Shown: positions 53,401 to 56,250 of the stretch, piece after piece
Layout: each line of letters opens with the position of its first letter
Numbering within the stretch: position 1 is the first letter of the stretch
Made by a program: the position numbers and the translations under genes
Notes under the pieces: model-generated
Database searches by the model: none
Told to the model about the DNA's origin: nothing
Seen by the model: the letters and a program-made list of their open reading frames with translations, nothing else
Assembly (NCBI GenBank): GCA_029263015.1
Contig: JAJCYI010000034.1
Coordinates: 1 to 64,000 of the forward strand
DNA: 64,000 nucleotides
Source of the DNA: Saprospiraceae bacterium
GTDB lineage: Bacteria > Bacteroidota > Bacteroidia > Chitinophagales > Saprospiraceae
Direction of reading: 5' to 3'

Positions 53401-53945
53401 ATGAAAAAAGCCATTTTAACTTTCCCCGCTTTCATCCTGCTCTTTTCCTTTTCCTGCGAAAAGAAAAACATCTTCAACCCAGAGCCGCCCGATGAACTCC
53501 CCCCGCCACCATGACCGGGGCCAATACATTCGGGTGCTTGGTCAACGGGGAGGTGTGGAGGCCGTATATTGAAAATGGAAATTTTTGGGACAGCCCTATT
53601 TATGCTAAGCACGATAGAGGATGGGTTGGGTGTGACCAATTGTTTGTGTCAGGTACTAGAGATCTTTCCACGAATGAAATTATCTTTCAAAGTATGTCTG
53701 TGAATGTTTGGTGTCCAAAATTAGGTGATAACGAGATTTCTTTTAGTAAAGGGAGGTTCAGGGATCAAGAAGGATGCGGTAGGTATTATTTGGATACATT
53801 AAGTCCACATACTTTGATAGTTACAAAATTAGACATTGTAAATAACATAGCATCAGGCACATTTGAATTTACAGCGATAAACGATGGTTGCCAAGATACT
53901 TTGAGGATTACGGAAGGCCGGTTCGACGTCGATTCGAGTTTATGA
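53401..53945 (+). pseudogene. Tandem lipoprotein array, copy 1 (frameshifted near 53500)
   Basis: MKKAILTFPAFILLFSFSCEKKNIFNPEPPDELPPPP* then in another frame MTGANTFGCLVNGEVWRPYIE...; 1 nt shorter than copies 2-4 at the CCCCCC tract. Confidence 0.85.
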
Positions 53946-53976
53946 CATAAACACTCAAATAAAAAACACCGCCGCC

Positions 53977-54522
53977 ATGAAAAAAGCCATTTTTACTTTC
54001 CTCGGTTTTATCCTGCTCTTTTCCTTTTCCTGCGAAAAGAAAAACATCTTCAACCCGGAGCCGCCCGATGAGCTGCCCCCCACTACCATGACCGGGGCCA
54101 ATACATTCGGCTGCTTGGTCAACGGGGAGGTGTGGAGGCCTTATGTTGAAACACTTGCATTTGGCCTTAGGCTAAATGTAAAGCATGACAGGGGGTGGGT
54201 GGATTGTGATCAGTTATTTATTGGAGCAAAAAGAATATTAACCGGAAATGAAGTTTTACATCAGGAAATTACAATAAATGTTTGGTGTCCAGTATTCGGC
54301 GAAAATAATATTACTCCTGCAAAAGGTGCTTTCGTTTGTTTTGAGCCCCGCGGTTGTAGTTATAATATTGACACTTTAAGTCCCTACACTATAAATATAA
54401 CTAGACTTGATACGATCAATAACATTGCCTCTGGGACATTTGAATTTACAGCAATAAACAATGAATGCCAGGATACTTTAAGGATTACAGAAGGCCGGTT
54501 CGATGCCGATTCGAGTTTATGA
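53977..54522 (+). CDS. Tandem lipoprotein array, copy 2
   Basis: Lipobox LLFSFSCEKK; TGANTFGCLVNGEVWRPYVE...CQDTLRITEGRFDADSSL. Confidence 0.92.
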   Translation: MKKAIFTFLGFILLFSFSCEKKNIFNPEPPDELPPTTMTGANTFGCLVNGEVWRPYVETLAFGLRLNVKHDRGWVDCDQLFIGAKRILTGNEVLHQEITINVWCPVFGENNITPAKGAFVCFEPRGCSYNIDTLSPYTINITRLDTINNIASGTFEFTAINNECQDTLRITEGRFDADSSL

Positions 54523-54553
54523 CATAAACACTCAAATAAAAAACACCGCCGCC

Positions 54554-55105
54554 ATGAAAAAAGCCATTTTCACTTTCCTCGGTTTCACCCTGCTCCTTTC
54601 CTCTTCCTGCGAAAAGAAAAACATCTTCAACCCAGAGCCGCCCGATGAGCTGCCCCCCGCTACCATGACCGGGGCCAATACCTTTGGTTGTCTTGTGAAC
54701 GGGGAGGTGTGGAGGCCGTATATTGAGGGGGGGATATTTGAAAACGCTTTAAATGTAAAGCATGATAGGGGGTGGGTGGATTGCGATCAGTTACATATTA
54801 GTGCAATAAGAAAATCCCACGAAGATGGTGTTTATGTTCTGCATCAAGAAATAGGAATCAATGTTTGGTGTCCTGAGTTGGGTATTAATAATATAACACC
54901 ATCCAAAGGAGCTTTCCTTTGTTTCAAGCCAAGTGGTTGTAGTTATGATGTTGACACTTTAAGTCCCTACACTATAAATATAACTAGACTTGATACGATC
55001 AATAACATTGCCTCTGGCACTTTTGAATTTACCGCGATAAGCGACGAGTGCCAAGATACATTAAGGATTACAGAAGGCCGATTCGATGCCGATTCAAGTT
55101 TATGA
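54554..55105 (+). CDS. Tandem lipoprotein array, copy 3
   Basis: Start MKKAIFTFLGFTLLLSSSCEKK; shared N- and C-terminal blocks. Confidence 0.92.
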   Translation: MKKAIFTFLGFTLLLSSSCEKKNIFNPEPPDELPPATMTGANTFGCLVNGEVWRPYIEGGIFENALNVKHDRGWVDCDQLHISAIRKSHEDGVYVLHQEIGINVWCPELGINNITPSKGAFLCFKPSGCSYDVDTLSPYTINITRLDTINNIASGTFEFTAISDECQDTLRITEGRFDADSSL

Positions 55106-55136
55106 CATAAACACTCAAATAAAAAACATCGCCGCC

Positions 55137-55682
55137 ATGAAAAAAGCCATTTTCACTTTCCTCGCTTTCATCCTGCTCCTTTCCTTTTCCTGCAAAAAGA
55201 AAAACATCTTCAACCCAGAGCCGCCCGATGAACTGCCCCCCGCTACCATGACCGGGGCCAATACATTCGGCTGCTTGGTCAACGGGGAGGTGTGGAGGCC
55301 TTATGTTGAAGATCCATATTTTTTGGAAACGACTATTTTTGCTAAACACGACAGAGGGTGGGTAGGCTGCGATCAACTATTAGTTTCTGGTAAACTAAAG
55401 ACTTCTTCAGAAAACGAGGTTCATCAAGACATGAAAATGAATATTTGGTGTCCAATCTTAGGCGAAAACAAAATTACATATAGCAAGCGAAGTTTTAGAG
55501 ATTTTAATGGTTGTGGTGAATATCATTTGGACACCTTGAGTCCACATATTCTTATAATTACAAAACTAGATACGATAAACAACATTGCCTCTGGCACTTT
55601 TGAATTCACTGTGATAAGCGACGAGTGCCAAGATACATTAAGGATTACGGAAGGGAGATTCGACGTAGATTCGAGTTTATGA
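55137..55682 (+). CDS. Tandem lipoprotein array, copy 4
   Basis: Start MKKAIFTFLAFILLLSFSCKKK; shared blocks. Confidence 0.92.
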   Translation: MKKAIFTFLAFILLLSFSCKKKNIFNPEPPDELPPATMTGANTFGCLVNGEVWRPYVEDPYFLETTIFAKHDRGWVGCDQLLVSGKLKTSSENEVHQDMKMNIWCPILGENKITYSKRSFRDFNGCGEYHLDTLSPHILIITKLDTINNIASGTFEFTVISDECQDTLRITEGRFDVDSSL

Positions 55683-55713
55683 CATAAACACTCAAATAAA
55701 AAACACTGCCACC

Positions 55714-56250
55714 ATGAAAAAAGCCGTTTTTCCTTTCCTCGGTTTTACCCTGCTGCTTTCCTTGTCCTGCGAAAAGAAAAACATCTTCAACCCAGAACTG
55801 CCCCCCGCTACCATGACCGGGGCCAATACATTCGGCTGCTTGGTCAACGGGGAGGTGTGGAGGCCTTATGTTGAAACACTTGCATTTGGCCTTAGGCTAA
55901 ATGTAAAGCATGACAGGGGATGGGTAGATTGTGATCAGCTACATATTGGAGCGAGAAAATTGAAACTCGGAGAAGATAGTTTATTTCAGGAATTTAATAT
56001 TAATGTATGGTGTCCAATATTAGGGGAAAATAAAATAACGCCATCTAAGGGAGTTTTTCACTTTTTCCACCAACCATGTGGTTATAGATATCGAGTTGAT
56101 ACTCTTAGTCCCTACATTATGAATATTACAACGCTAGATACATTAAACAATATCGCTTCGGGCACTTTTGAATTTACCGCGATACACGATGGTTGCCAAG
56201 ATACTTTAAAGATTACCGAAGGTCGATTCGATGCCGATTCGAGTCTATAA
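55714..56250 (+). CDS. Tandem lipoprotein array, copy 5
   Basis: Start MKKAVFPFLGFTLLLSLSCEKK; shared blocks, PPDE segment deleted. Confidence 0.92.
   Translation: MKKAVFPFLGFTLLLSLSCEKKNIFNPELPPATMTGANTFGCLVNGEVWRPYVETLAFGLRLNVKHDRGWVDCDQLHIGARKLKLGEDSLFQEFNINVWCPILGENKITPSKGVFHFFHQPCGYRYRVDTLSPYIMNITTLDTLNNIASGTFEFTAIHDGCQDTLKITEGRFDADSSL

What the first reader, a model, noticed from the sequence alone, without database searches (positions are those of the whole stretch)
53401..56250. Five-copy tandem lipoprotein array inserted between thrA and thrB
Seen directly: five consecutive ~180-aa lipoprotein genes with near-identical N-terminal blocks (SCEKKNIFNPE...TGANTFGCLVNGEVWRPY) and C-terminal blocks (GTFEFT...CQDTLRITEGRFD.DSSL) flank divergent centres. 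Spacers are always 31 nt. The array separates thrA from thrB-thrC, all on one strand, so co-transcription is plausible. Cys positions (FGC, CDQL, WCP, GC, CQDT) are conserved, suggesting a disulfide-stabilised surface domain. Conserved termini with variable centres fit a diversifying surface lipoprotein family; that function is inference.
Basis: partly seen in the sequence, partly recalled or inferred. Interest (0 to 1): 0.8.

Follow-up and report, generated by a model that had tools for sequence, protein, structure and literature searches.

The report
Tandem lipoprotein array missing its hydrolase
Five tandem copies of a small outer-membrane-type lipoprotein gene (four intact, one broken) sit between two threonine genes in a Saprospiraceae bacterium; in many relatives the same lipoproteins sit directly in front of a secreted lipase-like enzyme that is absent here, which suggests a stranded set of partner or protection genes rather than a threonine or surface-antigen system.

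Summary
The array is real: five head-to-tail copies with exact 31-nt spacers between thrA and thrB-thrC. Copy 1 is frameshifted, so four genes are intact. All belong to a known, uncharacterised family (NCBIfam Riean_0653, beside Pfam DUF6252). Tandem clusters are common in this family (53 of 112 loci). The insertion is lineage-specific: the closest relative has thrA-thrB 55 bp apart and no array.

The conserved ends have different causes: the 5' block plus spacer is homogenised at DNA level (pS 0.18 inside the array, 0.55-0.60 between species), as in gene conversion, while the 3' part is conserved only as protein. The centre shows dN/dS well below 1, and no surface-export signal is present.

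The main new lead is a partner. In 27 of 70 testable loci the lipoprotein genes lie directly upstream of a large alpha/beta-hydrolase, often with a type IX sorting tail. Strong members of that hydrolase nearly always have the lipoprotein. A same-genus relative keeps a decayed hydrolase start inside its array; this genome has none.

Best guess: orphan antidote-like lipoproteins against such hydrolases (about 0.4). A helper role is the main rival. Function is untested.

The parts
53401..53945 (+). copy 1, frameshifted (pseudogene or switched-off copy); TGA at 53512-53514, residual ORF 53511-53945
   Evidence: one base missing beside the C6 run at 53499-53504
53946..53976 (+). 31-nt spacer 1
53977..54522 (+). 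copy 2, intact lipoprotein, 181 aa, Riean_0653 family
   Evidence: NF052634.1, 121.7 bits (cut-off 57)
54523..54553 (+). 31-nt spacer 2
54554..55105 (+). copy 3, intact lipoprotein, 183 aa, Riean_0653 family; structure predicted
   Evidence: 129.1 bits; pLDDT 89.5
55106..55136 (+). 31-nt spacer 3
55137..55682 (+). copy 4, intact lipoprotein, 181 aa, Riean_0653 family
   Evidence: 126.1 bits
55683..55713 (+). 31-nt spacer 4
55714..56250 (+). copy 5, intact lipoprotein, 178 aa (four codons shorter after the lipobox), Riean_0653 family
   Evidence: 115.7 bits
50836..53292 (+). thrA, aspartokinase-homoserine dehydrogenase; upstream flank of the insertion
   Evidence: AA_kinase, Homoserine_dh, ACT domains
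56251..56661 (+). 411-bp non-coding gap between the array and thrB; no hydrolase remnant; one TAnnTTTG (Bacteroidota promoter-like) motif at 56494
56662..57594 (+). thrB (GHMP kinase); downstream flank, followed by thrC at 57604-58905
   Evidence: in relative G010 thrB starts 55 bp after thrA

Best explanation
This is an orphan tandem array of Riean_0653-family lipoproteins. Shown here: in many Bacteroidota, genes of this family precede, on the same strand and usually within about 100 bp, a large alpha/beta-hydrolase that in several cases checked carries a type IX sorting tail; the window's array has no such enzyme, and a same-genus relative shows the enzyme decaying inside its array. Also shown: the copies are a lineage-specific expansion inserted between thrA and thrB, with 5' block and spacer kept alike at DNA level. 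Inferred: the lipoproteins are antidote-like. Each would sit in the cell envelope and bind and block a hydrolase released by kin or neighbours, the central variable part setting which one it recognises; unequal crossing-over and gene conversion through the shared 5' block and spacer would add, remove and swap copies. The export leader would thus stay uniform while the recognition part stays diverse.
For: Family membership of window copies and of ten relatives from hydrolase-linked loci, all above the NF052634.1 cut-off. Hydrolase directly downstream in 27 of 70 testable loci, against 2 of 65 upstream. Partner identity: PGAP1/DUF676-like serine hydrolase with G-x-S-x-G-G elbow; sorting tail above a curated cut-off in L088, L099, L104 (Pfam) and L069 (NCBIfam), and on the next ORF in L146; the L146 model matches esterases, best E 2e-7. 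Of the hydrolase loci from the family-wide search, those with core scores above 150 and upstream sequence nearly all carry the lipoprotein (L187-L193, L195, L196, L198-L202; exception L197), while most weaker relatives do not. Genome co-occurrence 17 of 43 against 5.6 expected, and 14 of 18 for strong hydrolases. Many lipoproteins stand without the enzyme: the enzyme needs the lipoprotein more than the reverse, as for toxin and antidote. G007, same genus: hydrolase N-terminus remnant (E 1.7e-9) inside its degraded array. Linked and orphan states alternate on the tree (at least 13 changes forced by strong branches). Intact copies 2-5 stay under purifying selection though no hydrolase was found in the genome. 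Homogenised 5' block: pS 0.18 in-array against 0.55-0.60 between species, 0 of 20000 permutations; the same in unrelated arrays L146 and L108.
Against: No toxicity or protection has been shown for any member. In Riemerella anatipestifer, Tn insertions in Riean_0653 reduced haemolysis and the gene on a plasmid restored it (PMC7881567), which suggests the lipoprotein helps an activity rather than blocks one. About 43 of 70 loci have no hydrolase nearby, so a role unrelated to it is possible. The centre shows no excess of amino-acid change, though dS is saturated. Proximal and distal copies track the hydrolase distances equally well (r 0.56 and 0.53), so no specific pairing is visible. The counts are not corrected for shared ancestry.
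Confidence: 0.4

Rival explanations
1. The lipoprotein is a helper of the hydrolase: a foldase, anchor or colipase-like cofactor for the secreted enzyme. The window's array is a leftover, or serves other secreted enzymes in trans.
For: Strict order lipoprotein-then-hydrolase and near-constant presence with strong hydrolases fit a chaperone equally well. Riean_0653 mutants lose haemolysis and complementation restores it, while the recombinant protein alone is not haemolytic (PMC7881567).
Against: One hydrolase often follows 2-6 diverged lipoproteins. Orphan arrays with intact, constrained copies persist in genomes without a detected hydrolase, which a dedicated helper would not need. Whether Riean_0653 has a hydrolase neighbour was not checked.
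Confidence: 0.27
2. Diversifying surface lipoproteins (antigen-like, or phage/host interaction), with the shared 5' block as recombination handle and the frameshifting C-run as on/off switch. This is.
For: Homogenised leader with divergent bodies; copy 1 off by one base beside a C6 run; a 144-aa homologue on another contig starts at the same internal Met (P0033).
Against: No export signal after the lipid Cys, unlike three SusD-like proteins of the same genome. Centre dN/dS well below 1. No invertase or promoter switch seen near the array. Coupling to a hydrolase elsewhere is unexplained by this view.
Confidence: 0.13
3. Mostly neutral local duplication of a generic beta-sheet lipoprotein of diverse roles. 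Constant spacers and alike leaders follow from duplication plus gene conversion, and the hydrolase is only one of several neighbours.
For: Tandem clusters and constant spacers recur in the family; many single-copy loci have unrelated neighbours; copy 1 is broken.
Against: Four copies remain intact and constrained; directional hydrolase linkage is strong.
Confidence: 0.17
4. Assembly artefact in copy number or in the copy-1 frameshift.
For: Fragmented assembly (245 contigs); exact repeats up to 112 nt.
Against: Copies' centres differ at most synonymous sites, so each is a separate gene; similar arrays occur in many other genomes.
Confidence: 0.03

Closest known systems
NCBIfam NF052634.1 Riean_0653 family (with Pfam PF19765 DUF6252 nearby)
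   Same: All four intact copies score 116-129 bits against a cut-off of 57, over nearly the full model.
   Different: Window proteins stay below the DUF6252 gathering score. The family has no known molecular function. Tandem array, orphan state and location between thr genes are specific to this locus.
rAID orphan immunity arrays of Bacteroidales (PMC12247911)
   Same: Co-oriented short genes, conserved intergenic sequence, immunity-like genes without the cognate effector (by analogy).
   Different: rAID is defined by a tyrosine recombinase and immunity genes against T6SS effectors. Here there is one lipoprotein family, no recombinase beside the array was seen, the linked enzyme is of type IX rather than T6SS kind, and no protection has been shown.
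T6SS lipase effectors with lipoprotein immunity (Tle/Tli), from general knowledge
   Same: Lipase-like enzyme encoded beside an envelope lipoprotein, sometimes in several copies.
   Different: Different family, and type IX sorting instead of T6SS delivery. Not tested as a homologue; recalled as an analogy only.
Tandem lipoprotein arrays such as staphylococcal Lpl, from general knowledge
   Same: Tandem paralogous lipoproteins with alike leaders.
   Different: No sequence relation was tested here; different phylum.

Membership tests
Riean_0653 family (NF052634.1) | Full-length score above the curated cut-off (57 bits) | tested here: met
   115.7-129.1 bits for copies 2-5
Pfam DUF6252 (PF19765) | Score above the gathering cut-off (27.2 bits) | tested here: not met
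   15.8-24.1 bits; some hydrolase-linked relatives pass at 30 bits
Lipoprotein + type IX-sorted hydrolase operon | Hydrolase gene directly downstream on the same strand | tested here: not met
   No match in window 53200-56800 (best E 0.2), none in G000 at the thresholds used; the window is an orphan array
Lipoprotein + type IX-sorted hydrolase operon | Type IX sorting domain on the partner | tested here: inconclusive
   No partner in the window. In relatives: above a curated cut-off for L088, L099, L104 and L069; below it for L071, L108, L125; on a neighbouring ORF for L146
rAID-like orphan immunity system | Associated tyrosine recombinase | tested here: inconclusive
   None of the flanking genes scanned is one; not every ORF of the window was scanned
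rAID-like orphan immunity system | Genes protect against a cognate effector | not testable with these tools
   Needs an expression or competition test
Surface-exposed Bacteroidota lipoprotein | Lipoprotein export signal, C-X-K-(D/E)2-X or acidic run after the Cys | tested here: not met
   CEKKNIF/CKKKNIF in window copies; rule from PMC5080379, defined in other genera; only three SusD-like proteins compared

The most novel reading that the evidence does not exclude
Riean_0653-family lipoproteins are antidotes of a widespread, undescribed class of type IX-secreted lipase-like enzymes in Bacteroidota, and genomes such as this one keep orphan, recombining antidote arrays against neighbours' enzymes: an antagonism and defence system built on type IX secretion.
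Probability: 0.33. Interest if true: 0.8.

Novelty: new variant of a known kind. Interest (0 to 1): 0.5.

Why it matters
The family is named but has no function. The order lipoprotein(s) then hydrolase gives a directly testable partner for it across Saprospiraceae, Chitinophagaceae, Hymenobacter and flavobacteria. If the pair is toxin and antidote, it would add an antagonism route to a secretion system known mainly for digestion, gliding and virulence. If it is enzyme and helper, it would explain the one published phenotype (loss of haemolysis). Either way the array is a clear example of leader blocks homogenised while the protein bodies diverge.

Tried and rejected
Surface antigen under positive selection: dN/dS below 1, no export signal. 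Functional link to threonine biosynthesis: G010 has thrA-thrB-thrC-eamA without the array, other genus members carry the family elsewhere, and thrA/thrB lie on different contigs or far apart in G009, G007, G004, G001 and G011. Mobile-element insertion: the 411-bp flank is single-copy in the genome and the longest direct repeat between flanks is 8 nt; a transposase-like ORF lies 15 kb away. Phage origin: no relatives in the viral collection, no PHROG or PADLOC match. Fold identification of the lipoprotein: confident model but no PDB or viral match at E <= 0.001. Linkage to the HTH regulator gene found near both the G000 and G029 arrays: that gene is present in most related genomes tested and unlinked in G007, G009 and G010. 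Specific co-evolution of the proximal copy with the hydrolase: not seen. Sigma-70 and terminator scans: not above shuffles, and unsuited to this phylum. Two scans were first sent with a wrong frame and one script stopped half-way (second part redone).

Full report
What is there. Five head-to-tail copies of one gene lie on the + strand at 53401-56250, between thrA (50836-53292) and thrB-thrC (56662-58905), separated by four spacers of exactly 31 nt. Copies 2-5 are intact lipoproteins of 178-183 aa. Copy 1 has lost one base beside a C6 run and stops at 53512-53514. These are the only copies in the 6.95-Mb assembly.

What family. All intact copies match NCBIfam NF052634.1 'Riean_0653 family protein' well above its cut-off and fall short of Pfam DUF6252. 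Of 299 genomes of the same taxonomic family, 39 carry members, often several. Of 112 loci examined, 53 have two or more members in tandem, several with near-constant spacers. Tandem arrangement is therefore a habit of the family and not special to this window.

How the array came here. The closest genus member, G010 (83-84% identical proteins), has thrA and thrB 55 bp apart with thrC and an EamA gene following, and no family member. G008, G012, G003 and G005 also have them adjacent. Only three of the 14 genus genomes searched carry the family, at different sites: thrA-thrB in G000, next to rpoC in G007, and beside unrelated genes near a contig edge in G009. The five window copies group together on the tree with good support, so the expansion is local.

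Two causes for the conserved ends. Within the array, synonymous difference (pS) is 0.18 in the first 57 codons, 0.66 in the centre and 0.59 in the C-terminal part. Between this genome and G009 or G007 the same first block differs at 0.60 and 0.57 of synonymous sites (0.55 and 0.57 counting only codons for the same amino acid), so it is not held constant by selection on the DNA. In 20000 permutations of codon columns none reached the observed contrast. The 31-nt spacers share this homogenisation. This is the mark of gene conversion or unequal exchange. The C-terminal part is conserved as protein only. The same 5' homogenisation occurs in unrelated arrays (G029, pS 0.08 for copies b-f; Sediminibacterium L108, 0.09), though not in all. 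Centre dN/dS is about 0.14-0.32 where computable, so there is no sign of positive selection, with the caveat that dS is saturated in several pairs.

The protein. AlphaFold2 gives a confident (mean pLDDT 89.5) all-beta domain after the signal peptide, with no solved or viral structure matching at E <= 0.001. Cys77/Cys106 co-occur perfectly and Cys127/Cys166 nearly so across 105 homologues, which suggests two disulfides; Cys46 is almost invariant and unpaired by this test. Cys77/Cys106 mark a subset of the family, so phylogeny contributes to that correlation. The residues after the lipid Cys do not fit the published surface export signal.

The partner. Clustering of neighbouring genes brought out one recurrent neighbour: a large protein with a G-x-S-x-G-G motif. 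Pfam identifies weak to clear PGAP1/DUF676/LCAT-like hydrolase matches. The type IX sorting tail (Por_Secre_tail) passes a curated cut-off in L088, L099, L104 and L069, is below it in L071, L108 and L125, and in G029 (L146) lies on the next ORF, not on the hydrolase itself. The modelled L146 protein, of modest confidence (mean pLDDT 66), matches esterases. In 27 of 70 loci with enough downstream sequence the hydrolase is directly downstream on the same strand; upstream it occurs in 2 of 65. Starting from the hydrolases, most strong ones have a family lipoprotein just upstream. Across 299 genomes the two co-occur more than expected: Fisher 1.3e-6, or 8.5e-11 for strong hydrolases, uncorrected for phylogeny. 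All ten relatives tested from hydrolase-linked loci belong to the Riean_0653 family.

The window is an orphan. No hydrolase remnant is seen in 53200-56800, and none was found in this genome by profile (which scored only two candidates per genome) or by single-protein search. In G007 the degraded array contains a hydrolase N-terminus with E 1.7e-9 on the same strand, next to truncated lipoprotein copies. The genome has at least 150 type IX sorting tails (150 candidates were scored), so the secretion route is in use.

Most likely mechanism. Shown: family, array anatomy, 5' homogenisation, hydrolase linkage in relatives, orphan state here. Inferred: the lipoproteins act as antidotes that bind type IX-delivered or surface-held hydrolases, and orphan arrays protect against enzymes of others. 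For this speak the asymmetry (strong hydrolase rarely without lipoprotein, lipoprotein often without hydrolase), several diverged lipoproteins per hydrolase, repeated change between linked and orphan states, and continued constraint on orphan copies. Against it speaks the R. anatipestifer phenotype, in which loss of Riean_0653 reduced haemolysis and complementation restored it (PMC7881567), which favours a helper role. I give antidote 0.4 and helper 0.27; neither is tested.

Comparison. By anatomy the nearest known systems are rAID orphan immunity arrays in Bacteroidales (PMC12247911) and T6SS lipase-lipoprotein pairs (from general knowledge). It differs in secretion route, protein family and apparent lack of a recombinase, so it is not filed as a member of either. 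A literature search for type IX lipases with immunity lipoproteins in the held library gave nothing on point, which does not exclude a description elsewhere.

Noticed in passing
53497-53514: Copy 1 differs from the others by one base beside a C6 run. A 144-aa homologue on another contig (P0033) starts at the same internal Met, so the site may be prone to slippage or switching; its DNA could not be fetched.
   Followed up: partly
54482-54553 and 55065-55136: Each gene's open frame extends about 70 nt upstream of its ATG across the spacer into the previous gene; an ATG in the end of copies 2 and 3 is in frame with the next gene (ORFs 54503 and 55086). Probably incidental.
   Followed up: no
L114:2220-3230, also L128, L156, L158, L166, L168, L171, L172: A ~330-aa protein with a weak BetR-domain match lies upstream of the lipoprotein genes, on the opposite strand where orientation was clear; a candidate regulator of the lipoprotein-hydrolase operon, absent in the window.
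   Followed up: partly
49077-50561 and L146:8542-10035: Orthologous HTH regulators (63% identity) lie near both the window array and the G029 array, but the gene is present in most related genomes tested and unlinked in others, so this looks like coincidence.
   Followed up: yes
L145:8667-10539 (G007): Degraded array with one intact lipoprotein, truncated copies and two or three hydrolase N-terminal fragments (best E 1.7e-9): a record of operon decay in the same genus.
   Followed up: yes
37154-37963: A transposase-like ORF on the minus strand, 15 kb before the array; named from its sequence only, not tested with a family search.
   Followed up: no
L102, L107 and L134, downstream of the lipoprotein gene: The ORF after the lipoprotein ends in a sequence like a type IX sorting tail although no hydrolase core was found there; possible further decayed operons.
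   Followed up: no
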